A stretch of 33,366 bases of DNA from Clostridium sp. (lineage in GTDB: Bacteria > Bacillota > Clostridia > Clostridiales > Clostridiaceae), in NCBI RefSeq assembly GCF_021443865.1, contig NZ_JABUTB010000007.1, forward strand, positions 36,656 to 70,021, in the 5' to 3' direction. The position numbers and the translations under genes are program-made. This document shows, one piece after another, positions 2,441 through 32,417 of this stretch. The notes beneath the pieces are model-generated. The model did no database searches, was not told the DNA's origin, and saw only the letters and a list, made by a program, of their open reading frames with translations. Position 1 is the stretch's first letter. Each line of letters starts with the position of its first letter.

Positions 2441-3430
2441 ATGAAATATATTTTGAAACGATTAGGGTTTTATTTTATGGCCTTTATCGGAGCATTTACG
2501 TTAAACTTCTTTCTTCCTCGTCTTATGCCAGGAGACCCAGTCCAAATGAGATTAGGAGAGCTTGCACAACAAGGTGGTAAAATAGATCCAGCCACTATAG
2601 CAGCTATTGAAAAAATGTTTGGAATTAACAGCAATGAGCCTTTAATAGTAACTTATTTTAAAAATTTCGTTGATATATTAAAAGGTGATTGGGGAGTTTC
2701 TTTTACAAATAACCTATATGCAGTAACTGACGTAATAAAAAGACCATTAGGGTGGACAGTATTTTTATGTGGAACAGCATTAATATTATCATTTATTATT
2801 AATACGGCTTTAGGTATATTTGTTGCATGGAGAAGAGGAAGTAGATTAGATACAACATTAACAGTTGGGGGACAAATTATGGCAAATATTCCTGCTGTAA
2901 TTATTGCATTAACTTTAAGTTATACATTGGCTTATAGTGGGATTTTCCCTAAAGGCTATGCAATAACGCCTTTATTATATGCAAAGGGTTTTGCATATGT
3001 TAAGGATGTTGCCTATCATGCCTTCTTACCAGTAACTGCAATTATTTTAAGTAGTTTCGGTGGAATAATGGGTATGAGAGCTAATATGATAAATCAATTA
3101 GGTGAAGATTATATAGTTATGGGAGTTGCAAAAGGCGTTCCTGATAAAAAGATTATGCTTAAGTACTGTGCAAGAAATGCTATGCTACCAGTGGTAACTT
3201 CATTTGCAATGTCAGTTGGATTTTTACTTGGTGGACAATTACTTATTGAAAATATATTTAACTATCCAGGATTAGGAAAGTTAATGATTCAAGCTATTAA
3301 TGGTAGAGACTACCCATTAATGCAAGGTATTTTGCTTATGACTACAATTTTGATGTTGTCAGCTAATTTTATTGCAGATATAAGTGTTTTTATTCTTGAT
3401 CCAAGAATTAGAAGACAATCAGGAGAATAA
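2441..3430 (+). CDS. ABC importer permease, DppB/OppB family
   Basis: This 329-residue integral membrane subunit has about six hydrophobic segments and forms half of the translocation pore. The N-terminal helix followed by FFLPRLMPGDPVQMRLG is characteristic of the OppB/DppB side. The EAA-loop region that contacts the ATPases is visible around MGVAKGVPDKKIMLKYCARN, followed by LPVVTSFAMSVGFLLGG. The length is normal for the family. The ATG is preceded by a GAGGAGGAG ribosome binding site. The gene lies 30 nt after the lipoprotein gene and 26 nt before the second permease, consistent with one transcript. Confidence 0.88.
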   Translation: MKYILKRLGFYFMAFIGAFTLNFFLPRLMPGDPVQMRLGELAQQGGKIDPATIAAIEKMFGINSNEPLIVTYFKNFVDILKGDWGVSFTNNLYAVTDVIKRPLGWTVFLCGTALILSFIINTALGIFVAWRRGSRLDTTLTVGGQIMANIPAVIIALTLSYTLAYSGIFPKGYAITPLLYAKGFAYVKDVAYHAFLPVTAIILSSFGGIMGMRANMINQLGEDYIVMGVAKGVPDKKIMLKYCARNAMLPVVTSFAMSVGFLLGGQLLIENIFNYPGLGKLMIQAINGRDYPLMQGILLMTTILMLSANFIADISVFILDPRIRRQSGE

Positions 3431-11315: not shown

Positions 11316-11999
11316 TTGAGAATAAATAAACTATTAAGCAACTATGGATATTGCTCAAGAAAAGAAGTAAGTAGATTAATTGAGGATAAAAGAATAATTG
11401 TTAATGGAAAGCTATGCGAGCAAGGTCAATGGGTGGAAGAAACTGATTATATATTATTAGATGGAGAAAAAGTTAAACAAAAGGATAGGGTATATATAGC
11501 CTTAAATAAACCTAGGGGAATAGTTTGCACTTCATCAAGAGAAGTAAAGGATAATATAATTGATTTTCTTAATTATAAGGATTATGTTTTTCCAGTTGGT
11601 CGTCTAGATAAGGATTCAGAGGGACTTATATTAATGACTAATGATGGGGATGTTGCTAATAAAATATTATCTTCAGAAAGTTATCATGAAAAAGAATATA
11701 CAGTGACATTAGATAAGAATTTTGATGATGAGTTTATTTATAATATGTCAAAGGGAGTTAATATATTAGATACAGTTACAAGACCTTGTAAGGTAACAAG
11801 AATAAATGATAATACATTTAACATAATATTAACTCAAGGCTTAAATAGACAAATAAGAAGAATGTGTAAGGTCTTTGGGTATAATGTTATTAAATTAGAA
11901 AGAATAAGGATAGTCAGTGTACTTTTAGAGGGAATAGAAGTTGGAAACTGGAGAGAGTTAACTAAAGAAGAAATAGAAAGTTTAATGGAAATAAGCTAG
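11316..11999 (+). CDS. 23S rRNA pseudouridine synthase, RluF/RluB family
   Basis: This 227-residue RNA-modifying enzyme has an N-terminal S4 RNA-binding domain (about residues 1-60, INKLLSNYGYCSRKEVSRLI) and an RsuA/RluB/E/F catalytic domain with PVGRLDKDSEGLILMTNDG. D98 is the catalytic aspartate. The motif GLNRQIRRMCKVFGYNVIKLERIRI is typical of RluF-like enzymes that modify helix 69/74-region uridines of 23S rRNA. The start is TTG at 11316, with AGGAAGGA 9 nt upstream and the S4 domain beginning at once. It stands alone between two terminators, and the second overlaps its stop codon. Confidence 0.88.
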   Translation: MRINKLLSNYGYCSRKEVSRLIEDKRIIVNGKLCEQGQWVEETDYILLDGEKVKQKDRVYIALNKPRGIVCTSSREVKDNIIDFLNYKDYVFPVGRLDKDSEGLILMTNDGDVANKILSSESYHEKEYTVTLDKNFDDEFIYNMSKGVNILDTVTRPCKVTRINDNTFNIILTQGLNRQIRRMCKVFGYNVIKLERIRIVSVLLEGIEVGNWRELTKEEIESLMEIS

Positions 12000-12031
12000 T
12001 ATTACCAAAAGTTATACTAGCTTATTTTTTT
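11991..12031 (+). terminator. Rho-independent terminator overlapping the stop of the pseudouridine synthase gene
   Basis: ATAAGCTAGTAT (11991-12002) pairs perfectly with ATACTAGCTTAT (12014-12025), followed by seven T. The stop codon TAG lies inside the 5' arm, so the 3' UTR is minimal. Confidence 0.9.
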
Positions 12032-12098: not shown

Positions 12099-13811
12099 AT
12101 GGAAAATAATCATAGGATGTGTAGAAATATGTCCATTGTAAGCAAAGCTCTTTATAGGACAATGATTGGTTGTGGAGGAATATTAGAAAAGAATTTTAAT
12201 AAGCAAACTAAAAACTTTAAGAAAGTAAACAATGATGTACTATTTAATATTTTAAAGAAAAACGCTAGTAGTGAAATAGGTAAAAAACATAAGTTTAAAG
12301 AAATACTTTCAATAGAGGATTATAAGTCAAAGCTACCATTAACAGAATACTCTTTTTATGAAAATTATATTGAACGTATGGCAAGTGGAGAGAAAAATAT
12401 TTTAATAACAAAAAAAGTTGAATATTTTGGGCATACTTCAGGAACTACAGGTAAGCAAAAATTAATTCCTGTAACAAAGGAAAGTAGGCTTAAAGCTTCA
12501 AAATATATGGCATTATTAATAAATAAATATGCATATAATATCTTTAAAGATAATTGGAATTACGGAAGAGGATTAATGATAGCTGATGTTGTTATGAGTA
12601 CTTATACAAAAGGGGGAACTCCTATTTGTTCAGCTACATCTGGAGGGATAAACAGTATTAAAAACTTTTTGCCTTATTTATATACTTCACCCTATGAAGT
12701 TATGAGCATTAAAGACAAGGAAGTATCTCTTTATTTGCATATACTCTTTGGATTATTAGAAAAGAATTTATTATTCATATCTGCAGTATTTATTTCAAAT
12801 GTTCTAGATTTATTAAGAGTTATGGAAAAGAATTCAGATGATTTAGTTAAGGATATAAGAAAGGGAAGATTAAGCAAAACACTAAATATTGATGAAGAAA
12901 CTAGAAAGACTTTAAATAAATATTTATCACCAAATGCAGCTAGAGCAGAGGAATTAGAAAGAGAATTTAAGAAGGGCTTTAATGGAATTTGTAAAAGAGT
13001 ATGGCCAAAACTTCAATATATTGCTTCTGTTACAGGAGCAAATTTTTCAATTTATAATGATGTAGTTGATTACTATTCTGGAAATATCCCTATATATTCT
13101 CCTTGTTATGCAGCATCAGAAGGAACTATGGGTATAAATCCATATGTTCTTAAGATGAGATATGTAATAATACCAGATACAATTTTTTATGAGTTTATAC
13201 CAGCAGAGGAGGTTGATAAAAAGGAACCTAGAACTCTTTCCTCTGAGGAATTAGAAATAGGAGAAAGCTACGAAATAGTTATTACCACCTATGCAGGACT
13301 TTATAGATATAGATTAGGAGATGTAGTTAAGGTAGTAGGTTTTTACAATAATTCACCAGAAATAGAATTTTTATACAGAAGAAATCAAGTATTAAACATG
13401 GTATCAGAAAAAACCACAGAGGAACATTTAACAAATGCCATTAAAAATACAAAGAATAAGCTTAATATTAATTTAGTAGATTACACTACAGTAACAGATA
13501 ATTTAATAACCCCAGGCAGATATAAATTTTACTTTGAAGTTAAAGGAAAGATTTCAAAAGATGATGTTAGGAAGATGGAAATCACCTTAGATAAAGAGCT
13601 TAGAAATTGTAATTTAGCCTATAACAGATTTAGAAATAAAAATGGACTAGCTATGCCTAAGATAATAATAGTGGAAGAGGGAACCTTTAATAAAGTTAAG
13701 GAGTTTCTATTTAAAAAGGGAATTTCAAAAAATCAAATTAAAATACCAAGAGTAGTTACTACAAATAAAAATATTCTACAAGTAATTGAAGGAAATAAGG
13801 TGTATTATTAG
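12099..13811 (+). CDS. Plant-GH3-like acyl-acid amido synthetase (auxin-responsive GH3 family)
   Basis: This protein of up to 570 residues belongs to the GH3 family of the acyl-adenylate superfamily (not glycoside hydrolase family 3). Plant members activate carboxylic acids such as indole-acetate or jasmonate with ATP and join them to amino acids. The ATP motif TSGTTGK is at residues 113-119, followed by the expected Lys and LIP. The family hallmark GLYRYRLGD is at residues 400-408, with GF shortly after. Substrates of clostridial homologues are unknown to me. The start is uncertain: the ATG at 12099 lacks a Shine-Dalgarno sequence, and ATGs at 12117 and 12129 are alternatives, the latter preceded by AGG. 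The SDR gene follows after 58 nt with no terminator, suggesting one operon. Confidence 0.8.
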   Translation: MENNHRMCRNMSIVSKALYRTMIGCGGILEKNFNKQTKNFKKVNNDVLFNILKKNASSEIGKKHKFKEILSIEDYKSKLPLTEYSFYENYIERMASGEKNILITKKVEYFGHTSGTTGKQKLIPVTKESRLKASKYMALLINKYAYNIFKDNWNYGRGLMIADVVMSTYTKGGTPICSATSGGINSIKNFLPYLYTSPYEVMSIKDKEVSLYLHILFGLLEKNLLFISAVFISNVLDLLRVMEKNSDDLVKDIRKGRLSKTLNIDEETRKTLNKYLSPNAARAEELEREFKKGFNGICKRVWPKLQYIASVTGANFSIYNDVVDYYSGNIPIYSPCYAASEGTMGINPYVLKMRYVIIPDTIFYEFIPAEEVDKKEPRTLSSEELEIGESYEIVITTYAGLYRYRLGDVVKVVGFYNNSPEIEFLYRRNQVLNMVSEKTTEEHLTNAIKNTKNKLNINLVDYTTVTDNLITPGRYKFYFEVKGKISKDDVRKMEITLDKELRNCNLAYNRFRNKNGLAMPKIIIVEEGTFNKVKEFLFKKGISKNQIKIPRVVTTNKNILQVIEGNKVYY

Positions 13812-13869
13812 ATATTATAGGTAATATTTATAATATATACCAAATTAAAAGGGCGAAGGGGTTTTTAAA

Positions 13870-14661
13870 ATGAAGAATGTAGTAATAACAGGAAGTACTC
13901 GTGGGTTAGGTTTTGAAATGGCTAAGAAATTTTTAGAACTTGGGTGTAATGTAACTATTTCTGGCTCAAAGCCTGAATCATTTAATAGTACAAGGGAAAA
14001 GCTTAAGGGGTTTGAGTATAAATATACTTATATTCCTTGTAATGTTACAAATAAAGAAGAGCTTAGAAATTTATGGGCAAAATCAGTTGATAAATGGGGC
14101 TGTGTAGATATTTGGATTAACAATGCAGGGCAAAATTCTCCTCGTGAATTTCTTTGGGATACACCAGATGAGTATATTGATGCAGTTGTAGATACCAATA
14201 TTAAAGGTATTATGTATGGGTGTAAAATTGCTGTGGAAAATATGATTAAGCAGGGGCATGGTCAAATATGGAATATGGAAGGCTTAGGTTCAAATGATAT
14301 TATTATTGAACAAACTATTCTATATGGTACTTCCAAACGTGCACTTACTTATTTTACAAAGGCATTAGCTAAGGAATTAAAGGATTCTGCTATTAAGGTA
14401 GGAAGACTATCACCTGGAATGATGCTTACTGATTTTATTACAAAATCACCTACTGGTGAGCCTTCTTCTGTTGTAGAAGATGATAAATTTAGAAAGATTT
14501 TTAATACTCTTGCAGATAAACCAGAAACAGTAGCTGAATTTTTAGTTCCTAAAATTATTAGTAATAAAAAGCAGGATGCCCATATAGTTTGGCTTACAAA
14601 TATGAAATCAGCTAAAAGATTTATGATGTCTCCTTTTAAGAAGAGAGAGCTTTTAAAATAG
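13870..14661 (+). CDS. SDR family oxidoreductase resembling chlorophyll b reductase (NYC1/NOL type)
   Basis: This 263-residue Rossmann-fold NAD(P)-dependent dehydrogenase has the cofactor motif TGSTRGLG (residues 7-14), NNAG (84-87) and catalytic Y152 and K156 in YGTSK. The serine nearest the catalytic position is S141, 11 residues before the Tyr rather than the usual 13. That spacing, the text MEGLGS, RLSPGMMLTDF and a tail with AEFLVP recall plant NYC1/NOL SDRs, from memory. It presumably reduces a carbonyl or oxidises an alcohol on the intermediate handled by its neighbours. A chlorophyll substrate is implausible here. It lies between the amido synthetase and an FAD oxidoreductase; the gap to the latter is 119 nt with no terminator. 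GGGCGAAGGGG is a strong ribosome binding site. Confidence 0.85.
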   Translation: MKNVVITGSTRGLGFEMAKKFLELGCNVTISGSKPESFNSTREKLKGFEYKYTYIPCNVTNKEELRNLWAKSVDKWGCVDIWINNAGQNSPREFLWDTPDEYIDAVVDTNIKGIMYGCKIAVENMIKQGHGQIWNMEGLGSNDIIIEQTILYGTSKRALTYFTKALAKELKDSAIKVGRLSPGMMLTDFITKSPTGEPSSVVEDDKFRKIFNTLADKPETVAEFLVPKIISNKKQDAHIVWLTNMKSAKRFMMSPFKKRELLK

Positions 14662-14780
14662 ATATAAAAATTAATAAAGAATAAATTTACTATACTTTTA
14701 TATTATATTTAATATTTTCTAAAGCTTACGAATAAGATTATTAATAGAATAATTAATTATAAATTAAGGCGGAATATATT

Positions 14781-16640
14781 ATGTATGATGTAATTATTAT
14801 AGGAGCTGGATTATCAGGACTTACAGCAGCAGCTTTATTAGCAAAAAGAAATTTAAAGGTTTGCCTAGTGGAAGCTCAATATAAACCTGGTGGTTCTTGT
14901 GGTATTTTCAAAAGAGGAGATGTTGTATTTGAGCAAGGTGCAGCAATGATATATGGATTTAATGATAAAGGTTTTAGTCCTCATAGGTTTGTTTTTAATG
15001 CTCTAGAAGAGCCAATAGATATATTAAAGCATGATGCGTTATATGCTATTAATTTTGGAGAACATAGAATAATTTTTCATGAAGATATAGATAAGTTTAT
15101 TGAAGAATTAGTAAAGGTATTTCCAAAAGAAAGAGAGAACTTTAAAAGATTTTATAGTGATTTATCAAAGAGATATTTAAAGATAATAGCAGAAGATCCA
15201 AAGTTCACAACACCAGATGCAATGAAAAAAGAAAAGGGATTAAAATCTTTATTAAAACATCCAATTGAATACATTAGGTTTTTAGGATATATGAACAAAA
15301 ATACAGAAAGTATTTTAAAAAAATATTTTAAAGATCCAGAGGTATTTAATTTATTTGATAAGTTAACCTCTACATACTGTTATACAAATGTTAAAGAAAC
15401 ACCAGCAATATTATCTTCCATTATGTTTGTAGATAATCATTTTGGTGGTAGTTATTATCCAGCAGGCTCCACATTAAATTTAGTTGGTAAGCTTGAAAAG
15501 GTAATAGAAGAGCATAAGGGAGAAATCATATATAACAGAGAAGTAGAGAAAATAATAGTGGAAAATAACACAGCTACAAAAGTACAGATAGATAATGGGG
15601 AATTATTAAGTGCTAAATATATTATAAATTCAGGTAATGTCTGGAACTTATATAATAAGCTATTGAAGTATGATACTACTATAGAAATTAAAAGCTTAGT
15701 AAATAATTTAGAGCCATCATATCCATCAGTAGTAATATTTGCTCTTGTGAAAAAAGAAGTTATTCCAAAGGGGACATTGCCAATTGAAATGCTAATTGCT
15801 GATAAAGATAGATTAGATGAAGGTGAAATTACTGTATATATTTTAAGTATAGATGATAAAACCCTTTGTAATGAAGAGTATCATACAATTATGGCTATAG
15901 GACCTTCCTTTAGAATATGGCCAAAGGGCTTTAAAAATAACTATAAAACAGAAGAATACAAAGGCATGAAGGAAATAGAGAAAAATAGAATGCTAAATGT
16001 ATTAGAAAAAAGATTCCCTGGATTTAAAGAAGGTCTATGTCATGTAGAAATAAGCACTCCAACCACCTTAAATAGATATGTCTTAAAAGAGGGTGGAAGT
16101 GTAGCAGGACCTAAACAAAAATTAGGACAACACATGCTTAAGAGATTAAAGACACAAAGCCATATTAAAAACCTTTATAATTGTGGAGAATCGACTGTTA
16201 TGGGAACAGGAACTCCAGCAGTTACTATATCAGGAATAAGTGCTGCAAATCTTATATTAAGAGACTTAAAGTTAGAGGAATTTGAATATAAAGAAGGAAT
16301 GAAAAACTATGTAAATATAGTTAAAAAGCCATTTCAATATAGTCAAGTTAAAATAGGGAAAAATGAAAAAGAGGACAAGGTTGCAAAACTAGCTTTAGAA
16401 TGTGAATTTTGTGAAAAGCCTTTATGTGAAAGAAAATGTCCATATAAGATTTCCATAAGAGATATAAATAGAAGAGTTGCAGTAGGAAACTTTTATGGAG
16501 CAAAAAGAATATTAAAGTTTAATACTATTAATCCATGCTTAACTTGTGAAAGCAAATTATGTGAAGAAAATTGTATAAGGAATAGAAAATCTAAGGCAGT
16601 TAAAATAAATGAAATAAATACTAAGCTTGAGGAGCTATAA
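14781..16640 (+). CDS. CrtI/CRTISO-like FAD oxidoreductase fused to a two-cluster Fe-S domain
   Basis: This 619-residue protein has an N-terminal FAD-binding motif IIGAGLSGLTAAALL (GxGxxG at 8-13) and a body like phytoene desaturase, carotenoid isomerase and retinol saturase. The second FAD-contact region is GESTVMGTGTPAVTISG near residue 475. After about residue 530 comes an extra domain with two CxxCx4Cx3C motifs: C541, C544, C549, C553 and C586, C589, C594, C598. This resembles the N-terminal bis-[4Fe-4S] domain of glutamate synthase small subunit and dihydropyrimidine dehydrogenase, placed here at the C-terminus. The arrangement suggests electron exchange with ferredoxin or another carrier during saturation, desaturation or isomerisation of an unsaturated substrate. 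The stop is 3 nt from the ABC ATPase start, so the genes are probably coupled. Confidence 0.82.
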   Translation: MYDVIIIGAGLSGLTAAALLAKRNLKVCLVEAQYKPGGSCGIFKRGDVVFEQGAAMIYGFNDKGFSPHRFVFNALEEPIDILKHDALYAINFGEHRIIFHEDIDKFIEELVKVFPKERENFKRFYSDLSKRYLKIIAEDPKFTTPDAMKKEKGLKSLLKHPIEYIRFLGYMNKNTESILKKYFKDPEVFNLFDKLTSTYCYTNVKETPAILSSIMFVDNHFGGSYYPAGSTLNLVGKLEKVIEEHKGEIIYNREVEKIIVENNTATKVQIDNGELLSAKYIINSGNVWNLYNKLLKYDTTIEIKSLVNNLEPSYPSVVIFALVKKEVIPKGTLPIEMLIADKDRLDEGEITVYILSIDDKTLCNEEYHTIMAIGPSFRIWPKGFKNNYKTEEYKGMKEIEKNRMLNVLEKRFPGFKEGLCHVEISTPTTLNRYVLKEGGSVAGPKQKLGQHMLKRLKTQSHIKNLYNCGESTVMGTGTPAVTISGISAANLILRDLKLEEFEYKEGMKNYVNIVKKPFQYSQVKIGKNEKEDKVAKLALECEFCEKPLCERKCPYKISIRDINRRVAVGNFYGAKRILKFNTINPCLTCESKLCEENCIRNRKSKAVKINEINTKLEEL

Positions 16641-16643
16641 AAA

Positions 16644-17573
16644 ATGTACATTCTTCAAATTGAAAATCTCCATAAAAAATATAATGACTTAGAGGCTATT
16701 AAAGGTATAGATTTATCAATACAAAAGGGCGAAATATATGGCTTATTAGGTCCAAATGGAGCAGGGAAAAGTACCTTAATAAAGATTATTTCAGGTATTG
16801 AAGATATGACTTCAGGGAAAATAATATTTGAAGAAAAAGAAACTAATATTAATAAATATAAAAAGAATATTGGATTGTTACCTCAAGATATTGCAATCTA
16901 TGGTGATTTTACAGCTAGGGAAAATGTATCATTCTTTTGTTCATTATACGGCTATAAGGGAAAAGAATTAAAGAAAAGAGTAAATAAGGCTTTAGACTTT
17001 GTTGGTCTTTTAGATTTTCAAAATAAAAAGTCTAGTGAGTTTTCTGGGGGAATGAAGAGAAGATTAAATATGGCATGCTCCATAGCACATAATCCAAAGT
17101 TAATAATAATGGACGAGCCAACTGTAGGAATAGATCCGCAATCAAGAAATCATATCTTAGAATCAGTTAAAAAAATAAATGAAGAAGGAACTACGATAAT
17201 ATATACATCTCACTATATGGAAGAAATCGAAGAACTCTGCAATAATATTTCAATCATGGATAATGGAAAGATAATAGCTAAGGGAACAAAAGAAGCTTTA
17301 AAAGCTAATTTTATTAAAGAAAATATATGTACTATAAATCTTAAAAGAGAAATTTATAATATAAATAAACAACTTAATAGAATACAAGGCATAAAGAAAG
17401 TAGAAGTAAGGAATAAAGAAATAAAGTGTTACTACTCAAAAGATATTAATATCCTTCCTAATATAATGAACACCATATTTAATAATAATGGAATTATAGA
17501 AAGTATAAGAAGTGAAATACCAACATTAGAAAGTGTATTTTTACAGTTAACAGGAAAACAATTAAGAGATTGA
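16644..17573 (+). CDS. ABC exporter ATPase (CcmA/DrrA type)
   Basis: This 309-residue nucleotide-binding subunit has Walker A GPNGAGKST (residues 36-44), the Q-loop in LLPQDIAIYGDFTARENV, signature FSGGMKRRLN, Walker B LIIMDEPTVGID and switch His in YTSHYMEE. The C-terminal extension of about 90 residues is typical of drug, antibiotic and lipid exporters of this type. It begins 3 nt after the oxidoreductase stop, and its ribosome binding site (GAGGAGC) lies inside that gene. Two ABC-2 permeases follow, giving a complete exporter, presumably for the product of the upstream enzymes. Confidence 0.9.
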   Translation: MYILQIENLHKKYNDLEAIKGIDLSIQKGEIYGLLGPNGAGKSTLIKIISGIEDMTSGKIIFEEKETNINKYKKNIGLLPQDIAIYGDFTARENVSFFCSLYGYKGKELKKRVNKALDFVGLLDFQNKKSSEFSGGMKRRLNMACSIAHNPKLIIMDEPTVGIDPQSRNHILESVKKINEEGTTIIYTSHYMEEIEELCNNISIMDNGKIIAKGTKEALKANFIKENICTINLKREIYNINKQLNRIQGIKKVEVRNKEIKCYYSKDINILPNIMNTIFNNNGIIESIRSEIPTLESVFLQLTGKQLRD

Positions 17574-17580
17574 GGTAGCT

Positions 17581-18705
17581 ATGATATTAATTAATTTAAT
17601 AAAAAAAGAAATAGTTTATTTTTTTAGAAATAAGTCTAATGTTGTTACAATGTTTATTTTTCCAATAGTTCTTATATTAATAATGGGATTTTCATTAAAT
17701 GGACTTATGAATGTAGATAAAAATATATTTGAAAATCAAAAGGTCTATTACAAGGTTAATGATTTAAAGGATAATAATAAGTATTTAAATATCTTCTTAA
17801 ACTTTAAAGAAGAATGTGAAAAGCTTATGAAGATAGAATTTATAGAAATAACAGATGATAATGAAGGTAAGCTTAAGGTTAAAAACTACAAAGCCTTAGC
17901 TTATATAAGTATAGAAGAGGGCAATTATAATTTTTACAGAAATGAAAAAAAGGAAAACACAGCACAGAAAATATTTAGAAGCAGCTTTAATAAATTTTTA
18001 GAAAGATACTCATATTTTGAAAAGGTAGCTAATGAAGAACCGAGCTTTATAAAGGAGTTTATAGAGGAAGGAAGTAAGATAAAAATTAAAGAAGGTGGAA
18101 TATCAAGTAGGGGAATAAGCTCCTTTACCTATTATACCTTTGCAGAACTTGTATTAATAATACTTTATATTTCACAGATAACAAGTGTATCTATGTATAG
18201 GGAAAACTTTGAAAATACCTTTATTAGATTAAAAGTTACTAAAGCTAGTAATTTTAGTATTATAATATCAAAAATTATACTAGGAATAATTATAGGTATT
18301 ATTCAAGTAATAATTGTTTACTTAGTTAGTAACTTTATTTTGAGAATAAATTGGGGAGAAAATTTAATAGGAGTAGGAATGGTTTTATTATCTTTAATAA
18401 TATTTAGCTCTGTATTAGGAGTAGCTATAAGCTTAATGTTTAAGGATAATAAGACAGCCAGTAGTTTAATAAATGTACTCTTAATTATTTTTGGGTTTTT
18501 AGGGGGAGCATACCTTCCAATATCACTAATTAAATCAAATATAATTACAAATGCACTATGCCAAGTAACACCAACTTATTGGGCTAATATATCCCTATTA
18601 AGTTTAAGTTCAGGCATTAAAACTAATTATCCAATTATATCAATAGTAATAAGTTTAGAATTATCATTAATATTATTTTCATATTCATTAATAAAAAGCA
18701 AGTGA
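17581..18705 (+). CDS. ABC-2 type permease, first exporter membrane subunit
   Basis: This 374-residue membrane protein has the ABC-2 layout: one N-terminal helix (about residues 20-40), a charged soluble region of about 140 residues presumably outside the membrane, then a cluster of about five hydrophobic helices from residue 185 on. The sequence FLGGAYLPISLI near residue 310 is the usual conserved turn of this family. Its ATG is 7 nt after the ATPase stop, with GAGGTAG as ribosome binding site overlapping that stop. It probably pairs with the next gene product. Confidence 0.85.
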   Translation: MILINLIKKEIVYFFRNKSNVVTMFIFPIVLILIMGFSLNGLMNVDKNIFENQKVYYKVNDLKDNNKYLNIFLNFKEECEKLMKIEFIEITDDNEGKLKVKNYKALAYISIEEGNYNFYRNEKKENTAQKIFRSSFNKFLERYSYFEKVANEEPSFIKEFIEEGSKIKIKEGGISSRGISSFTYYTFAELVLIILYISQITSVSMYRENFENTFIRLKVTKASNFSIIISKIILGIIIGIIQVIIVYLVSNFILRINWGENLIGVGMVLLSLIIFSSVLGVAISLMFKDNKTASSLINVLLIIFGFLGGAYLPISLIKSNIITNALCQVTPTYWANISLLSLSSGIKTNYPIISIVISLELSLILFSYSLIKSK

Positions 18706-18720
18706 AGGTAGGTATTAATA

Positions 18721-19839
18721 TTGATTAAAATAATCATTAACACAATAAAGATACTATTTAAGAAAAAAAGCTTTATTATTATGTCAATAGTGGCACCTTC
18801 CTTAGTTATAGTATTCTTTAGCTTTATTTTTGGAAATAGTATTAATTATAAAGTAGGAATAATAGATAAGGATAAGGATTATTTATCTAATGAAATAATA
18901 AAAAGTATAAATAATATTGAAAATGTGGACATAGTTAATATAACTAATGAAAACTACGAACTTTTAATGGCATCTCACCAAATTCAAATGGTAGTTATAA
19001 TAGAAGAAGATTTTACTTATAAGGTAATAAATTTAGAAGAGGGAGAAATTACATTAAAATCAATTTCTAATAGTGATATTAAGGCAACAATAACATCTAT
19101 TATAAAATCAAAAGTAGATAATTTAAGCCTAATAGCTAAAATAAGTAAAAAGAATATAAATAGCTTTAAAGAAAATAATGAAGGATTTAAAGAAAACTTA
19201 ATTAAATATAATTTAAATAATATTGAAGATACTAGACCTTCTATATCAAATTCATTAGGAATAGTTATAATGATGATTTTAATAACTGGATCATCAATAG
19301 CAAATTTCTTAATTGAAGATGAAGAGTATGGTACAAAGGAAAGGGTTTTAGTTAGTGGAATAAATCCACAAAAATATTATATGGCTTTAATGCTAGTATT
19401 TTATTTATTATCTTCTATAAGCAGTGCTATATATTACATACTTTGTAGATTATTAAAGATAGATTTTGGAATGAGTAATGCTAATTACTTTTTAGCTGTA
19501 ATGTTATTATTAAATTTAGTATCTATAGCCTTAAATTTATTTATTGTAAGCTTTACTAAAAATAGATATATAGCAAGTACAGTAAATATATTAATTATAA
19601 TACCAACCTCTATGATGTCAGGACTATTTTGGGACTTTGAAATTATGCCAAGGTATATTCAAAAAATAGGAAGCTTTTTGCCACAAAGGTATGTGTATAA
19701 AGCTGTTGAAAGTTTGCAAATGCAATGTGGATTAAATTCTATTTATGATTATATTTTTTATATGATAGCTTTATCAATAGGTCTATTTATTTTAAGTTAT
19801 ATAAATTTAGAAAATAAACTATACAAGCTTCACCAATAA
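18721..19839 (+). CDS. ABC-2 type permease, second exporter membrane subunit
   Basis: This 372-residue protein has the same architecture as its neighbour: an N-terminal helix (IIMSIVAPSLVIVFFSFIFG), a soluble region of about 150 residues, and five or more C-terminal helices including PTSMMSGLFWDFEIMPRYIQ. The TTG start at 18721 is supported by AAGGTAGG about 8 nt upstream. A hairpin overlaps its stop codon (19825-19874) and probably closes the cluster before the bile salt hydrolase gene. Confidence 0.85.
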   Translation: MIKIIINTIKILFKKKSFIIMSIVAPSLVIVFFSFIFGNSINYKVGIIDKDKDYLSNEIIKSINNIENVDIVNITNENYELLMASHQIQMVVIIEEDFTYKVINLEEGEITLKSISNSDIKATITSIIKSKVDNLSLIAKISKKNINSFKENNEGFKENLIKYNLNNIEDTRPSISNSLGIVIMMILITGSSIANFLIEDEEYGTKERVLVSGINPQKYYMALMLVFYLLSSISSAIYYILCRLLKIDFGMSNANYFLAVMLLLNLVSIALNLFIVSFTKNRYIASTVNILIIIPTSMMSGLFWDFEIMPRYIQKIGSFLPQRYVYKAVESLQMQCGLNSIYDYIFYMIALSIGLFILSYINLENKLYKLHQ

Positions 19840-19874
19840 CTTTTTAAATAATAGAGAGGTTATAGGTGAAGCTT
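19825..19874 (+). terminator. Hairpin at the end of the exporter cluster, probable terminator
   Basis: AAGCTTCACCAATAAC (19825-19840) pairs with GTTATAGGTGAAGCTT (19859-19874), 16 bp with one mismatch and an 18-nt loop. The stop codon of the permease is inside the 5' arm. The following sequence is only TAATATATTCTT, so termination may be partial and some transcripts may continue into the bile salt hydrolase gene. Confidence 0.5.
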
Positions 19875-19952: not shown

Positions 19953-20942
19953 ATGTGTACAGCATTAAGTATAAGTTCAAAGGAAGGTAACTACTACTTT
20001 GGACGTAATATGGATTTAGCCTATACCTTTAATCAATCAGTTATTATGCTTCCAAGGTTATTTGAATTTAAGGATATAGTTACAGGAAATACAATAGTAA
20101 ATAATCGTGCAATACTTGGAATGGGAACAGTTATTGATAATCATCCTACACTGGCAGATGCTATGAATGAAAATGGATTAGCTGCTGCAGGTTTAAACTT
20201 TCAAGGCTATGCATATTTTGAAAAGAAAGTAAGTAAAGATAAGGCTAATATTCCTCCCTATGATTTTATTCAATGGGTATTATCTAATTATGATACTGTA
20301 GAGGAAGTTAAAAATAATCTTCAAAATATAGAATTAGTAGATATTCCAATTAATGAAAAGACGCCCTGTCCAACTCTTCATTGGATGATTAGCGATAAAA
20401 GTGGTAAGTCTATAGTTGTTGAAAAAACAAAGGATAAATTTGTTTTTTACGATAATACTGTAGGAGTACTTACTAATAATCCCACCTTTCATTGGCATTT
20501 AACTAATTTAAATGAATATATCTTTATTACTCCGAATACTCCTAAAAATACTACTTGGAGCAAGCAAAAATTAAATCCTTTAGGAGTGGGAGCAGGAACA
20601 CTAGGAATACCAGGAGATTTTGCATCAGTTTCAAGATTTGTAAGAATTGCGTATATTAGAGCCAATATGCCAGAGATTAATAATGATATAAATGCAGTTA
20701 CTCAATTTTTTCATATGCTTGATTATGTTAAGATGGTTAAAGGTGGAGTTATAACTGAAGATGGATTAGAAGAGTTAACACTATATTCTTCCTGTATGGA
20801 TCAAGAAGAATGTATTTACTATTATAAAAATTACGATAACAATAGAATAAATGCTATAGATATGAAAAAGGAAAAGTTAGAAGGTAATGAATTAAAAATA
20901 TTTGAATATTTAAAAGTTCAAGATATAAATTATCAGAATTAA
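19953..20942 (+). CDS. cbh: Bile salt hydrolase (choloylglycine hydrolase)
   Basis: This 329-residue Ntn-hydrolase cleaves the amide bond of glycine- or taurine-conjugated bile acids. After Met removal Cys2 becomes the N-terminal nucleophile. Other catalytic and oxyanion residues sit at the positions known from C. perfringens CBAH-1: R18, D21, N82 (AGLNF), N175 and R228 (SRFVR). Length and C-terminus (NAIDM, KEKLEGNELK) also match that enzyme, favouring bile salts over penicillin V. No signal peptide is visible, so it acts in the cytoplasm. GAGGTGGAG is the ribosome binding site. It follows the exporter cluster after a hairpin. A sulfonate/taurine-type importer follows after a second hairpin and its own promoter. 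Confidence 0.92.
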   Translation: MCTALSISSKEGNYYFGRNMDLAYTFNQSVIMLPRLFEFKDIVTGNTIVNNRAILGMGTVIDNHPTLADAMNENGLAAAGLNFQGYAYFEKKVSKDKANIPPYDFIQWVLSNYDTVEEVKNNLQNIELVDIPINEKTPCPTLHWMISDKSGKSIVVEKTKDKFVFYDNTVGVLTNNPTFHWHLTNLNEYIFITPNTPKNTTWSKQKLNPLGVGAGTLGIPGDFASVSRFVRIAYIRANMPEINNDINAVTQFFHMLDYVKMVKGGVITEDGLEELTLYSSCMDQEECIYYYKNYDNNRINAIDMKKEKLEGNELKIFEYLKVQDINYQN

Positions 20943-21165: not shown

Positions 21166-21930
21166 GTGAATAAGAAAAGAATTATAAAAACATGGATTTC
21201 AATTATAGTATTGCTTTTAATATGGATAATTGTAACTAACCTTAATTTAGTAAGTTCTTATATACTACCATCACCAGCTAAGGTACTTGATAGTTTATAT
21301 AAAATGACTCTATCTGGGGAAATATTTATAGATATATACATAAGCTTTATAAGAGTAATAAAAGGCTTCTTCATAGCAACAATATCCGCATTTATATTAT
21401 CAATGCTTAGGATTATACTTCCTAAATCTACTGATTACTACGAGACTATTGTTCAATTCTTAAAAAATATTCCACCATTAAGTTTAATACCACTATTAAT
21501 TTTATGGTTTGGTATAGGAGAAACTACTAAGATAGCAATTATCGTATTAACATCATTTTTTCCTATATATTTAAATACAGTTAAAGGCTTTATAAGTTGT
21601 GATAATAAGCTTATTGAAGTTGGACAAGTTTATGGATATTCAAGTATTAAAAGTTTTTTTAAAATAAGAATTCCCTATGCTATGTCAGATATATTAGTTG
21701 GTATGAGAATAGGCCTTGGATATAGTTGGAGAGCTATAATAAGTGCTGAAATGATTGCTGCATCAACAGGTCTTGGACATATGATTTTATTTTCTCAACA
21801 AATGTCTAGAACAGATAAGGTTATAGTAGGTATTTTAGTAATAGGGGTAGTTGGTTACATGACAGATAGATTATTTGCCTTTGTAATTAGTAAATCATTG
21901 AAGGGATTAGGTAATAATGGCTGGGATTAA
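21166..21930 (+). CDS. ABC importer permease, SsuC/TauC family
   Basis: This 254-residue permease of the nitrate/sulfonate/taurine class has about six membrane segments. The N-terminal helix is followed by LPSPAKVLDSLYKM, a hallmark of the family. The ATPase-contact loop is around EVGQVYGYSSIKSFFKIRIPYA, followed by GLGYSWRAIISAEMIAASTGLG. The start is GTG at 21166, with ACGGAG about 9 nt upstream. The 3' end overlaps the ATPase gene by 14 nt, implying translational coupling. Family members import taurine, alkanesulfonates, nitrate or thiamine precursors. The adjacent bile salt hydrolase makes taurine an attractive but unproven ligand. Confidence 0.87.
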   Translation: MNKKRIIKTWISIIVLLLIWIIVTNLNLVSSYILPSPAKVLDSLYKMTLSGEIFIDIYISFIRVIKGFFIATISAFILSMLRIILPKSTDYYETIVQFLKNIPPLSLIPLLILWFGIGETTKIAIIVLTSFFPIYLNTVKGFISCDNKLIEVGQVYGYSSIKSFFKIRIPYAMSDILVGMRIGLGYSWRAIISAEMIAASTGLGHMILFSQQMSRTDKVIVGILVIGVVGYMTDRLFAFVISKSLKGLGNNGWD

Positions 21931-22630
21931 GTTAGTAAATGTAAGTAAAGTTTATACTGTTGAAAAAGAAAATATAAAAGCTTTAGATAGTATTAATTTA
22001 GATATACATGAAAATAAAATTACAGTAATTTTAGGAAGAAGTGGATGTGGAAAAACTACCTTACTAAGAATTGTAGCTGGATTAATAAAACCTGATGAAG
22101 GAAAAATAGAAGAAACTGATGTAAATAGGAAAGCCTATGTATTTCAAGAAGATAGATTAATGCCATGGTTAAATGTTAAAAAGAACATTACCTTTGGGAT
22201 AAAGAATAAAAATATAGATGAAGAAAAAATTAATGAAATTATAGAAACTGTAGGTCTTGAAAAGTTTTATAATGCATATCCAAATCAATTATCAGGTGGA
22301 ATGAAGCAAAGAGTATCTATTGCTAGGGCTTTTGCATATGAACCAGATTTTATAATGATGGATGAGCCTTTTTCTGCATTAGATTACTTTACAAGGGAAC
22401 AAATGCAAGAGGAATTAATAAAAATACACAATAAGAGAAATTGTCCAATTTTATTTGTAACCCATAGCATAGATGAGGCATTGGTTCTAGGGGATAGAAT
22501 TGTAGTTTTAGAAAAGGGAAAAATTAAATCTCAATATGAAATGGATGATAAAAATAAAGAAAGAGACCTATTAAGTGATAAGTATTTAAATATTAAAAAA
22601 CAGATAATGAATGACTTAAAAGTTGAATAA
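21917..22630 (+). CDS. ABC importer ATPase, SsuB/TauB family
   Basis: This 237-residue ATPase has Walker A GRSGCGKTT (residues 40-48), the Q-loop in YVFQEDRLMPWLNVKKNI, which is typical of the nitrate/sulfonate/taurine branch, signature LSGGMKQR, Walker B FIMMDEPFSALD and switch His in FVTHSIDEAL. It overlaps the permease gene by 14 nt and is followed after 28 nt by the binding lipoprotein, so the three genes form one unit in the order permease, ATPase, binding protein. Confidence 0.9.
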   Translation: MAGIKLVNVSKVYTVEKENIKALDSINLDIHENKITVILGRSGCGKTTLLRIVAGLIKPDEGKIEETDVNRKAYVFQEDRLMPWLNVKKNITFGIKNKNIDEEKINEIIETVGLEKFYNAYPNQLSGGMKQRVSIARAFAYEPDFIMMDEPFSALDYFTREQMQEELIKIHNKRNCPILFVTHSIDEALVLGDRIVVLEKGKIKSQYEMDDKNKERDLLSDKYLNIKKQIMNDLKVE

Positions 22631-22658
22631 ATAAAATATACAATTGGAGGAAAACAAA

Positions 22659-23627
22659 ATGAAATTAAGAAACAAGGTACTAACATCTATTATAGCAGGA
22701 GCTGTAATTATAACATCTATGGTAGGATGTTCACAAAAAGGAGAGGCTAAAAAATCAGATTTAAGTGAATTAACAATAACTCACGTAACAGCCCCTTTAA
22801 ATGTACCAAGTATAGTACAAAAAAATAAAAATATGATAGAAGAAGAATTTAAGAATAATGGTAAGGACATTACTGTTAAATATGCAGAAATAACATCAGG
22901 AGCAGATCAAACTCAAGCATTAGCATCAGGTGATGTTGATATATTATATGCTCTTGGAGGAACTTCAGCAGTGTTAGCAGCTGCAAATGGTGCAGACATA
23001 AAGGTATTAAATATATATGGAAGATCTCCAGAAGCTTATACTATATATTCAAAGGATGCAAGTATTAAATCAGCAGAAGACTTAAGAGGTAAAACAGTAG
23101 CAGGTCCTGTGGGAACTACTTTACACCAATTATTAGTAGCTTATCTTGAAAAAGCAGGAATGACTATTGAAGATGTAAATTATGTAAATATGTCTATTCC
23201 AGATGCAAAAGCAGCATTAGATGCTGGAAGTATTGATGCAGCATTAGTTGCTGGTGCTACTTCATATAAATCAAAGGAAGAAGGATATAACCTGATAGCA
23301 GATGGAAAGGGCTTAACTGATGGAGTAAATGTAGTTGCTGTTAGAGAAGATTTTTATAATGAACATAAAGAAGAAATAGATTTATTTATTAAGACTCAAT
23401 CTAAGGTTCTTGACTTTATAAATGAAAATCATGATGAAACAATGGAAATAGTTGCTAATGATCTTGGCTTAGAAAAAGCAGCAGTAGAAGAAATGTTTAA
23501 ACAATACGATTTTAATATTGAAATAACAGAAGCTGACCGTGAAGCAATGCAAAATGTAGCAGACTTTATGTATAAGACTAAAATGATAGATAAAGAATTT
23601 AATACAGATTCATTATTTTTAAACTAG
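22659..23627 (+). CDS. Substrate-binding lipoprotein, SsuA/TauA (NMT1-like) family
   Basis: This 322-residue binding protein has a lipoprotein signal: basic start, hydrophobic core, lipobox MVGC with Cys24 as the lipidated residue. The mature part has the family features of ligand-binding proteins for sulfonates, taurine or nitrate: ASGDVDILYALGGTSAVLAAANGADIKVL, then DLRGKTVAGPVGTTLHQLL and ALDAGSIDAALV. I chose the ATG at 22659 because GGAGG (22646-22650) lies just before it; the in-frame TTG at 22644 overlaps that ribosome binding site and would spoil the signal peptide. A terminator follows at 23647-23680. The ligand cannot be assigned from sequence alone. Confidence 0.87.
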   Translation: MKLRNKVLTSIIAGAVIITSMVGCSQKGEAKKSDLSELTITHVTAPLNVPSIVQKNKNMIEEEFKNNGKDITVKYAEITSGADQTQALASGDVDILYALGGTSAVLAAANGADIKVLNIYGRSPEAYTIYSKDASIKSAEDLRGKTVAGPVGTTLHQLLVAYLEKAGMTIEDVNYVNMSIPDAKAALDAGSIDAALVAGATSYKSKEEGYNLIADGKGLTDGVNVVAVREDFYNEHKEEIDLFIKTQSKVLDFINENHDETMEIVANDLGLEKAAVEEMFKQYDFNIEITEADREAMQNVADFMYKTKMIDKEFNTDSLFLN

Positions 23628-28075: not shown

Positions 28076-29398
28076 ATGAAATTAGGTACATTTAAAGGTG
28101 GTATTCATCCAAGGGATGGGAAAGATATATCAAAAGATCTTCCCATAAAGGAAATTTTACCTAAAGGAAATTTGGTATACCCTATAGCTCAGCATATAGG
28201 AGCACCTGCAAAACCAATAGTTGCTGTTGGAGATAAAGTGTTAGTAGGGCAAAAAATAGCAGAGTCTACAGGTTTTATTTCAGCCAATATTATATCTTCA
28301 GTATCTGGTACAGTAGAAGCTATTGAACCAAAACTTAATGTTTCAGGTAATAAAGTTATGTCGATTATTATTCAAAATGATAACGAATACAGAAAAATGG
28401 ATGGTATTGGCGAAAAAAGAGATTATACTAAACTTTCTAAAGATGAAATAAGAAATTATATTAAAGAAGCAGGCATTGTAGGTCTAGGAGGAGCTGGCTT
28501 TCCAACTCATGTTAAGCTTACTCCAAAGGATGACAATGCTATTGATTATGTAATTGTAAATGCAGTAGAATGCGAACCTTATTTAACTTCAGACTATAGA
28601 GTTATGCTTGAAATGCCTGAAAAAGTAATTGGAGGACTTAAAGTTATTTTAAGTTTATTCCCAAAGGCTAAAGGAATAATTGCCATTGAAGATAATAAGC
28701 CAGAGGCTATAAAAGTTATTAGAAAGGCAGTAGAAGGAGAAGATAATATTACTGTAAGGGTTCTTAAAACTAAATATCCACAAGGAGCAGAACGTTCTGT
28801 AATATTCGCTACAACAGGAAGAAAAATTAATTCAACTATGCTACCAGCAGATGCAGGTTGTGTTGTTGATAATGTTGATACTGTAGTATCAATTTACATG
28901 GCTGTATGTGAATCAACACCTCTTATGAGAAAAATAATTACAGTAACAGGAGATGCTATTAGCAATCCTAGAAACTTTGAAGTAAAAATAGGGACAAACT
29001 ATTCTGAGCTTATAGAAGAAGCAGGAGGGTTTAAAGAAAGACCTGAAAAAGTCATTTCAGGAGGACCTATGATGGGAGTTGCCATATTTAATCTGGATGT
29101 TCCAGTAACTAAAACAACCTCTGCACTTTTATGTTTTCTAGAAGATGAAGTAGCCAAGAATGAACCTACAGCTTGTATTCGTTGTGGAAGATGTGTGGAA
29201 GTTTGTCCTAGCAATCTTATACCTCAAAAAGCAATTGAAACTATAGATGGGTTAGACAATGAATCATTTATAGCTATTAATGGTATGGAATGTTATGAAT
29301 GTGGAAGTTGTACTTATATTTGTCCTGCTAAAAGGAGAATTACACAAGCCTTTAAACAAAGTAGGAAAAGTGTTTTAGATAGTAGAAAAAAGAAGTAA
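28076..29398 (+). CDS. rnfC: Rnf complex subunit RnfC
   Basis: This 440-residue peripheral subunit of the ferredoxin:NAD+ oxidoreductase is where NAD(H) and FMN bind. The N-terminal region begins with the family's FKGGIHP. The nucleotide-binding core contains GLGGAGFPTHVKL and NAVECEPYLTSDYR. Two [4Fe-4S] motifs are near the C-terminus: C367, C370, C373, C377 and C406, C409, C412, C416. Rnf couples electron flow from reduced ferredoxin to NAD+ with Na+ or H+ export, supporting ATP synthesis in clostridia. It is the first gene of the operon in the clostridial order C-D-G-E-A-B. Confidence 0.95.
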   Translation: MKLGTFKGGIHPRDGKDISKDLPIKEILPKGNLVYPIAQHIGAPAKPIVAVGDKVLVGQKIAESTGFISANIISSVSGTVEAIEPKLNVSGNKVMSIIIQNDNEYRKMDGIGEKRDYTKLSKDEIRNYIKEAGIVGLGGAGFPTHVKLTPKDDNAIDYVIVNAVECEPYLTSDYRVMLEMPEKVIGGLKVILSLFPKAKGIIAIEDNKPEAIKVIRKAVEGEDNITVRVLKTKYPQGAERSVIFATTGRKINSTMLPADAGCVVDNVDTVVSIYMAVCESTPLMRKIITVTGDAISNPRNFEVKIGTNYSELIEEAGGFKERPEKVISGGPMMGVAIFNLDVPVTKTTSALLCFLEDEVAKNEPTACIRCGRCVEVCPSNLIPQKAIETIDGLDNESFIAINGMECYECGSCTYICPAKRRITQAFKQSRKSVLDSRKKK

Positions 29399-29462
29399 TA
29401 AAATTTTAATTTATAAAAATACTTAGGGGAAATAAAATTTATGGGGAAAGGAATTATCTAAA

Positions 29463-30476
29463 ATGAGTGAATTATATAATGTATCAGCATCACCTCATGT
29501 AAGAAGTAAAGAAAGTACTAAAACTATAATGGCTGATGTTGCAATTGCATTAATTCCAGCAGGTTTATTTGGAATATATAACTTTGGATTAAATGCATTA
29601 ATAATAATATTAATAAGTGTTGCCACTTGCGTGATTACTGAATATATCTATCAAAAAAGAATGAATAAAAAAATTACAATAAATGACTTTAGTGCAGTAT
29701 TAACAGGTCTGTTATTAGCATATAACTTACCATCTACTGTACCTTTTTGGGTGCCAATAGTAGGGGGAGTTTTTGCAATAATAATTGTTAAGCAGCTATT
29801 TGGAGGGCTTGGACAAAACTTTATGAATCCTGCCTTAGCTGCAAGATGCTTTTTACTTATTTCATTTTCAAGAATAATGACTGACTTTGGGATTGCAGCA
29901 GATAGTACAGTTAAAGGAATTATAATGAATGGACATGCAGCTGTAAATGGATATGCTATGGTGGATGGTGTTTCATCAGCAACTATACTTACAGCAGTTA
30001 AAACAGGAGGAGATTATAATTTATTAAGTATGTTCCTTGGAACAACAGGTGGAACAATTGGAGAAACCTCTGTAGTTGCAATTTTAATAGGAGCAATTTA
30101 TCTTCTTAGAAAAAAAATAATTTCTCTAAAAATTCCTATGACATATATAGGATCATTTATTGGATTTATTATAATAATGAATATTTTAGGTGGAAAAGGT
30201 CTTAACATAGAATATCTTATAGGAAATCTTTTTGGTGGTGGTTTAATGCTTGGGGCCTTCTTTATGGCAACAGATTATGTTACTTGCCCAATAACCCAAA
30301 AAGGAAAGATATACTTTGGAATTTTACTAGGATTTATTACAGCAATATTTAGGTATTATGGAAGTTCAGCAGAAGGAGTTTCCTATGCTATTATATTATC
30401 TAATATGATGGTACCTCTTATCGAAAAATACACTCTTCCAAAGGCATTTGGAAAGGAGGCTACTATAAATGGCTAA
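29463..30476 (+). CDS. rnfD: Rnf complex subunit RnfD
   Basis: This 337-residue membrane subunit of the NqrB/RnfD family has about ten hydrophobic helices. T174 in DGVSSATIL is the expected threonine for covalent FMN attachment (SxAT motif). GGLGQNFMNPALAARCFLL is a strongly conserved family stretch, and the C-terminal half has FFMATDYVTCPITQKGK. It passes electrons across the membrane together with RnfG. The 3' end overlaps rnfG by 8 nt, and the rnfG ribosome binding site (AAAGGAGG) lies inside this gene. Confidence 0.95.
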   Translation: MSELYNVSASPHVRSKESTKTIMADVAIALIPAGLFGIYNFGLNALIIILISVATCVITEYIYQKRMNKKITINDFSAVLTGLLLAYNLPSTVPFWVPIVGGVFAIIIVKQLFGGLGQNFMNPALAARCFLLISFSRIMTDFGIAADSTVKGIIMNGHAAVNGYAMVDGVSSATILTAVKTGGDYNLLSMFLGTTGGTIGETSVVAILIGAIYLLRKKIISLKIPMTYIGSFIGFIIIMNILGGKGLNIEYLIGNLFGGGLMLGAFFMATDYVTCPITQKGKIYFGILLGFITAIFRYYGSSAEGVSYAIILSNMMVPLIEKYTLPKAFGKEATING

Positions 30477-31098: not shown

Positions 31099-31101
31099 TA
31101 A

Positions 31102-31812: not shown

Positions 31813-31814
31813 TT

Positions 31815-32405: not shown

Positions 32406-32417
32406 GGGGGATATAAA

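What the first reader, a model, noticed from the sequence alone, without database searches (positions are those of the whole stretch)
12099..19839. Undescribed-looking cluster: GH3-type amido synthetase, NYC1-like SDR, Fe-S-fused CRTISO-like oxidoreductase and ABC-2 exporter
Six co-directional genes with short gaps (mostly 3-60 nt, one of 119 nt) and no internal terminator, bounded by a strong terminator (11991-12031) and a hairpin (19825-19874). The three enzymes belong to families best known from plants (auxin conjugation, chlorophyll b reduction, carotenoid isomerisation/retinol saturation). Together they could activate and amidate an acyl acid, adjust a carbonyl and change unsaturation, with the product exported. 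No PKS, NRPS or terpene synthase is present, so common genome-mining rules might miss it. The families are read from sequence; the pathway is inference.
Basis: partly seen in the sequence, partly recalled or inferred. Interest (0 to 1): 0.75.

Follow-up and report, generated by a model that had tools for sequence, protein, structure and literature searches.

The report
Anaerobic lipid-remodelling flavoenzyme with private exporter
A supposed six-gene pathway in a Clostridium genome breaks down into two genes that occur elsewhere in related bacteria plus a conserved block of four genes, in which a predicted iron-sulfur flavoprotein would rearrange or reduce double bonds, likely in a lipid that is not a carotenoid, and an adjoining pump would likely export it.

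Summary
The six genes are real and lie as described, but they are not one inherited pathway. In every related neighbourhood I read, GH3 lacks the SDR and the CRTISO-like gene nearby (20 of 20), the SDR lacks the other two (11 of 11), and the CRTISO-like gene lacks both (10 of 10). What is conserved is the last four genes: a CRTISO-like flavoprotein with a predicted double [4Fe-4S] domain, an ABC ATPase and two ABC-2 permeases stay together in 4 of 4 other Clostridium genomes, in three different settings. Those genomes show no squalene/phytoene synthase, so a carotenoid role is unlikely. I read the block as an anaerobic enzyme that takes electrons through its own iron-sulfur clusters to isomerise or reduce C=C bonds of a hydrophobic molecule, with its own exporter. 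The substrate is unknown. GH3 is probably an N-acyl-amino-acid synthetase acting separately. Against full independence: all 5 genomes of the genus with the block also carry GH3, and contig lengths hint at GH3-SDR and GH3-CRT linkage in one close relative each. New variant of known families; moderate interest.

The parts
11991..12031 (+). intrinsic terminator ending the upstream pseudouridine synthase gene
   Evidence: read directly; folds at -18.3 kcal/mol with T-run
12129..13811 (+). GH3-type acyl-acid amido synthetase (ORF opens at 12099; likely start 12129)
   Evidence: PF03321/PF23571/PF23572; motifs TSGTT, YAASE, YRYRLGD; no SDR or CRT beside it in 20 of 20 relatives read
13870..14661 (+). 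classical short-chain dehydrogenase/reductase, patchily distributed
   Evidence: PF00106; TGSTRGLG and YGTSK; 12 of 206 family genomes at E <= 1e-50; no GH3 or CRT beside it in 11 of 11 read
14781..16640 (+). CRTISO-like FAD oxidoreductase with predicted C-terminal double [4Fe-4S] domain (CRT-FeS)
   Evidence: TIGR02730 262 bits, cut-off 586.9; PF14691; fold nearest to CrtD/CrtI-type enzymes
16401..16574 (+). eight-cysteine motif C-x2-C-x4-C-x3-C ... C-x2-C-x4-C-x3-C (residues 541-598)
   Evidence: present in 115 of the 120 listed rows, one of which is the window's own protein
16644..17573 (+). ABC exporter ATPase (DrrA type)
   Evidence: PF00005; TIGR01188 273 bits, cut-off 312
17581..18705 (+). 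ABC-2 permease 1 (SagH-like)
   Evidence: PF12698; NF038293 224 bits, cut-off 450
18721..19839 (+). ABC-2 permease 2 (TTG start)
   Evidence: PF12698
19825..19874 (+). strong hairpin without a T-run at the end of the block
   Evidence: -24.7 kcal/mol

Best explanation
The six genes are two genes (GH3, SDR) that occur apart in relatives, lying upstream of a conserved four-gene block whose CRTISO-like enzyme, with predicted FAD and double [4Fe-4S] sites, is predicted to isomerise or reduce C=C bonds, likely in a lipid that is not a carotenoid and that the adjoining ABC-2 transporter would likely export. Shown here: the partition into three units in the neighbourhoods read, the four-gene conservation, the eight-cysteine motif and the lack of a recognisable squalene/phytoene synthase. 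Inferred: electrons pass from ferredoxin through two [4Fe-4S] clusters to FAD, so that the flavin is reduced in the anaerobic cell and can drive cis-trans isomerisation or saturation; the product, or a toxic substrate, is extruded by the ATPase and its two permeases. GH3 is inferred to act separately, joining a fatty or other acyl acid to an amino acid by adenylation. The SDR's role is unknown and probably separate.
For: The 4 other Clostridium genomes with the enzyme at 78-80% identity have ATPase-permease-permease directly downstream (in one, G060, the ATPase gene looks interrupted), in three different upstream settings. The closest permease relatives (65% or more) occur in exactly the same 5 of 68 genus genomes; the next is 45%. 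No GH3 or SDR in any of 10 other CRT neighbourhoods, no SDR or CRT beside 20 GH3 genes, no GH3 or CRT beside 11 SDR genes. Eight cysteines in 115 of 120 listed rows. PF00494 not found in the 5 Clostridium genomes. Relatives of the exporter sit behind a histidine kinase and response regulator in 6 of 7 stretches read (two scored), as in lnrJKLMN (PMC7472640, passages), or in a PKS/NRPS cluster, i.e. with lipophilic compounds.
Against: No substrate or activity is shown. All 5 genus genomes with the block also have GH3 (24 of 68 do; chance 0.004, ignoring phylogeny). Equal contig lengths suggest that GH3 and SDR share a 16,190-base contig in one relative, and GH3 and CRT-FeS a 73,429-base contig in Clostridium sp. 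AL.422, whose SDR is on another contig. No terminator was listed between the units in this window. The six more distant homologues (49-54%) have no such exporter in the stretch read (one stretch is only 3 kb), and the five whose C-terminus was inspected lack the full cysteine set. One exporter relative on a plasmid has neither context.
Confidence: 0.5

Rival explanations
1. One six-gene pathway: GH3 amidates an acyl acid that the SDR and the CRTISO-like enzyme modify, and the transporter exports the amide. This strain's lineage would have assembled it recently.
For: Co-directional, no terminator listed in the gaps; all 5 block-bearing genus genomes also have GH3; contig-length hints of GH3-SDR and GH3-CRT linkage in one close relative each.
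Against: Units occur apart in all 20 + 11 + 10 neighbourhoods read; the SDR has no match at E <= 1e-50 in the other 67 genus genomes, although Clostridium sp. AL.422, not held there, has one.
Confidence: 0.12
2. The CRT-FeS/exporter block is a detoxification system: the enzyme saturates or isomerises membrane-active polyenes or polyunsaturated fatty acids and the Lnr-like pump removes them.
For: Related exporters in the same genus follow a kinase and regulator in 6 of 7 stretches read, scored as HisKA_3 and LuxR type in two; this is the layout of lnrJKLMN, which answers polyene antibiotics (PMC7472640, passages incl. abstract). Patchy distribution (6 of 206 family genomes, own included).
Against: In this block the two-component genes are missing; no direct comparison with LnrLMN sequences was made; another relative of the exporter lies in a biosynthetic cluster.
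Confidence: 0.25
3. The enzyme is a true carotenoid isomerase or desaturase acting on the cell's own or dietary carotenoids.
For: Best family score is carotenoid isomerase TIGR02730; some distant homologues neighbour CrtO- and GT2-like genes as in staphyloxanthin operons; a carotenoid-isomerase-like gene without a pathway is discussed for Spironucleus (PMC6397501, passages).
Against: Score far below cut-off; no squalene/phytoene synthase found in the 5 Clostridium genomes or in 3 of the 5 distant genomes tested, one of these only 78% complete.
Confidence: 0.08

Closest known systems
CRTISO / carotenoid isomerase (TIGR02730)
   Same: full-length match of the FAD part (residues 2-496), highest of the NCBIfam models
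   Different: 262 bits against a cut-off of 586.9; extra C-terminal dicluster domain; no squalene/phytoene synthase found in the genome
Dicluster domain of dihydropyrimidine dehydrogenase / GltD type (PF14691)
   Same: Pfam match above cut-off and two four-cysteine motifs
   Different: here fused behind a CRTISO-like flavoprotein; that GltD carries such a domain is recalled
LnrLMN polyene exporter with LnrJK (Bacillus subtilis)
   Same: ATPase plus two ABC-2 permeases; other members in this genus carry a kinase-regulator pair (PMC7472640)
   Different: kinase and regulator missing, CRT-FeS in their place; sequences not compared directly
OlsH lyso-ornithine lipid synthetase (GH3 family)
   Same: bacterial GH3 amide synthetase; the only NCBIfam hit (PMC12493201)
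   Different: 121.8 bits against 620; plant GH3 chains of the PDB reach 264 bits in a single-sequence search, a different kind of score
SagH permease family (NF038293)
   Same: 224-bit match of permease 1
   Different: below the 450-bit cut-off; no SagB/C/D-type gene among the six; SagA-like small peptides were not searched for

Membership tests
GH3 acyl-acid amido synthetases | three GH3 Pfam domains above cut-off | tested here: met
   306, 102 and 93 bits
GH3 acyl-acid amido synthetases | three nucleotide-binding motifs | tested here: met
   TSGTT 113, YAASE 337, YRYRLGD 402; motif II read as Y-x-x-S/T-E in 112 of 120 homologues, the pattern catching another site or none in the other 8
GH3 acyl-acid amido synthetases | ATP-dependent amide formation | not testable with these tools
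   needs enzyme assay
OlsH | equivalog score at least 620 bits | tested here: not met
   121.8 bits
Carotenoid isomerase (CRTISO) | equivalog score at least 586.9 bits | tested here: not met
   262.3 bits
Carotenoid isomerase (CRTISO) | carotenoid-forming genome (squalene/phytoene synthase) | tested here: not met
   PF00494 not found in 5 of 5 Clostridium genomes with the block
Double [4Fe-4S] (Fer4_20) domain | Pfam score above cut-off and eight cysteines | tested here: met
   35.0 over 25.8 bits; residues 541-598
SagH permease | equivalog score at least 450 bits | tested here: not met
   224.2 bits
Lnr-type polyene exporter | ATPase and two ABC-2 permeases side by side | tested here: met
Lnr-type polyene exporter | adjacent LnrJK-like kinase and regulator | tested here: not met
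   none among the genes between 11316 and 20942
Lnr-type polyene exporter | exports or resists polyenes | not testable with these tools
   needs experiment
NYC1 chlorophyll b reductase | orthology to NYC1/NOL | not tested
   only general SDR families were scored

The most novel reading that the evidence does not exclude
CRT-FeS is a clostridial polyunsaturated-fatty-acid isomerase/reductase: a single ferredoxin-fed flavoprotein that turns linoleate into conjugated and then trans-monoenoic acids, paired with a dedicated pump that clears these membrane-active lipids. An 80%-identical protein is named as Paraclostridium bifermentans, a species reported (as Clostridium bifermentans) to make trans-vaccenate from linoleate.
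Probability: 0.1. Interest if true: 0.8.

Novelty: new variant of a known kind. Interest (0 to 1): 0.42.

Why it matters
If right, anaerobes have rebuilt a carotenoid-isomerase-type enzyme with its own iron-sulfur electron supply and tied it to an exporter. That would be a lipid- or polyene-handling system which genome-mining rules based on PKS, NRPS or terpene synthases would likely not flag, and a concrete candidate for fatty-acid biohydrogenation or lipid export. It also warns against reading co-directional neighbours as a pathway without synteny.

Tried and rejected
Six-gene pathway: rejected as the main reading because the units occur apart. Carotenoid function: set aside for the Clostridium block because no squalene/phytoene synthase was found. 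OlsH, SagH and CRTISO membership: scores below cut-off. Plasmid carriage: the 20 records with a CRT match and the 13 with a GH3 match are all under 60% identity. Viral carriage: 22 stretches matched a pattern, none confirmed. RNA elements: no Rfam match in the window at gathering scores. Defence genes: 5 of the 6 proteins scanned, only a weak desaturase-like hit. Exporter linkage in Peptostreptococcaceae could not be reached: the single genome-contig scan, made with one sequence rather than an alignment, returned two Clostridium genomes, and the class, phylum and two order draws gave only distant homologues. The CRT-FeS model has mean pLDDT 75.2 with several stretches under 50, so no pocket analysis was tried. 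Papers: PMC12493201, outline with abstract, sections 6 and 8, and the first part of section 9; PMC13365329, PMC6397501, PMC7472640, PMC4478896 and PMC2654759, passages only. Searches for print on this gene block or on clostridial GH3 listed nothing that describes it; the library holds open-licence papers only, so this is no proof of absence.
Full report
What is there. The domain content is as claimed: a complete GH3 protein, a classical SDR, a CrtI/CRTISO-type flavoprotein with a C-terminal Fer4_20 domain, one ABC ATPase and two ABC-2 permeases. The upstream terminator is genuine; the downstream hairpin is strong but lacks a T-run. The next gene is a choloylglycine-hydrolase-family gene, which scores above the NCBIfam bile-salt-hydrolase cut-off (427 over 350 bits). 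The annotated GH3 start is probably ten codons too early.

Testing the cluster. I searched each enzyme separately in the 206 genomes held of the window's family. GH3 has matches in 58 of 206 at E <= 0.001, the SDR in 12 of 206 at E <= 1e-50 and the CRTISO-like protein in 6 of 206 at E <= 1e-60; each count includes the window's own genome. I then fetched stretches of 3 to 18 kb around the matches and compared them with the window's proteins. GH3: 20 of the 57 other genomes with a match were read, none with SDR or CRT in the stretch. SDR: all 11 other genomes were read (a second, partial match in G079 was not), none with GH3 or CRT; for one (L098) I saw only the tblastn result, not the gene list. 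CRT: 10 others were read (5 from the family, 4 from a draw of 391 class genomes, 1 from a draw of 398 phylum genomes), none with GH3 or SDR. In C. nigeriense (G020) GH3 and CRT share a contig but lie about 2.2 Mb apart. In one GH3 relative (G044, L057) the same outer genes, pseudouridine synthase and choloylglycine hydrolase, flank a stretch with GH3 but no SDR and no CRT block. 'Apart' here means apart from the window's other cluster genes; GH3 and SDR have other, varying neighbours.

The conserved unit. Upstream genes differ: a large predicted exported protein (G006), a ParA-like ATPase (G041 and G060) or a flavodoxin-like protein (G020) (read by eye). The closest permease relatives are found in exactly those five of 68 genus genomes; the remaining matches are 45% identical or less. 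In G060 the ATPase gene appears interrupted.

The enzyme. The nearest NCBIfam model is carotenoid isomerase, far below its cut-off; the model's best folds are a gamma-carotene desaturase, an archaeal oxidoreductase and CrtI. Residues 541-598 carry two four-cysteine motifs, kept in 115 of the 120 listed rows, the window's own protein among them (the listing stops at 120 of 1491). The six more distant homologues (49-54%) differ: the five whose C-terminus was inspected keep only part of the cysteines. Five of the six have a second CrtI-like protein beside them, and in L020 also a GT2, a CrtO-type acyltransferase and an MBOAT protein, reminiscent of staphyloxanthin operons; L012 and L021 look alike by eye, and the sixth (G865) has none of these. 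Squalene/phytoene synthase was not found in the five Clostridium genomes nor in three of the five distant genomes tested (one of them 78% complete), and was found in two. Of the five Clostridium genomes the window's own is 89% complete; the other four are at least 99%.

The exporter. Related ATPase-permease-permease sets in the genus are preceded by a kinase- and regulator-like pair in six of the seven stretches read (mostly by eye); in two of them the pair was scored and is HisKA_3 plus LuxR type. This is the layout of B. subtilis lnrJKLMN, whose induction by polyenes is published (PMC7472640, passages). Of three plasmid relatives looked at, one in Paenibacillus polymyxa (ATPase 47% identical) lies in a PKS/NRPS cluster, one in P. 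cellulosilyticus has a kinase and regulator and one in Enterococcus raffinosus has neither. Most of these contexts fit lipophilic cargo; none shows it.

Mechanism. Inferred, not shown: reduced ferredoxin feeds the double cluster, the clusters keep FAD reduced, and reduced FAD isomerises or saturates C=C bonds, as is recalled for plant CRTISO and animal retinol saturase. The window also encodes Rnf-type proteins, which fits a ferredoxin-based metabolism but proves nothing. The fatty-acid reading rests on an 80%-identical protein named as Paraclostridium bifermentans and on a review passage that Clostridium bifermentans, C. sporogenes and C. sordellii make trans-vaccenate from linoleate (PMC13365329); that the first is the same species is recalled, and whether the other two carry CRT-FeS was not tested. 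A purified and sequenced Butyrivibrio conjugated-linoleate reductase is cited in papers seen as passages, but its sequence was not compared.

GH3. The protein matches plant GH3 chains in the PDB with up to 264 bits and the OlsH model with 122 bits, far below cut-off. OlsH forms N-acyl-ornithine, and its authors suggest that other bacterial GH3 proteins make other N-acyl amino acids (PMC12493201). I take that as the likely role here.

Results against my reading. All five block-bearing genomes of the genus also have a GH3 gene while 24 of 68 do (four of the 24 only as fragments), chance 0.004 without correction for phylogeny. Contig lengths, an indirect clue, suggest that GH3 (92%) and SDR (89%) share a 16,190-base contig, and that GH3 and CRT-FeS of Clostridium sp. 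AL.422 share a 73,429-base contig while its SDR is on a 40,690-base one. Linkage may therefore be recent and partial rather than absent.

Verdict. Observation confirmed, pathway not supported, a different and smaller unit found. Interest lies in the CRTISO-like enzyme with its own predicted Fe-S domain and exporter.

Noticed in passing
window 19953-20942: Choloylglycine-hydrolase-family gene (427 bits to the bile-salt-hydrolase model, cut-off 350; 280 to penicillin V amidase, cut-off 600) directly downstream; an amide hydrolase near an amide synthetase.
   Followed up: partly
L009 (G060) about 2472-3110: ATPase gene of the CRT-FeS block seems interrupted: only residues 96-309 align and the ORF is 173 aa; pseudogene or assembly error not resolved.
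   Followed up: no
L020, L021, L012: CRT-FeS homologues beside a second CrtI-like protein, GT2-, CrtO- and (L020, L021) MBOAT-like genes; the three genomes of that group with the gene (G407, G244, G444) show no squalene/phytoene synthase, so what these staphyloxanthin-like operons act on is open.
   Followed up: partly
window 28076-33242: RnfC-, RnfD- and Fer4-domain RnfB-like proteins of an Rnf complex.
   Followed up: no
window 21166-23627: SsuC/SsuB/SsuA-like (aliphatic sulfonate or taurine type) transporter, three genes long.
   Followed up: no
L119/L120 (Paenibacillus polymyxa plasmid p-YT9A): Exporter relative inside a PKS/NRPS cluster with 2-oxo acid dehydrogenase E1/E2-like genes and acyl carrier proteins.
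   Followed up: no
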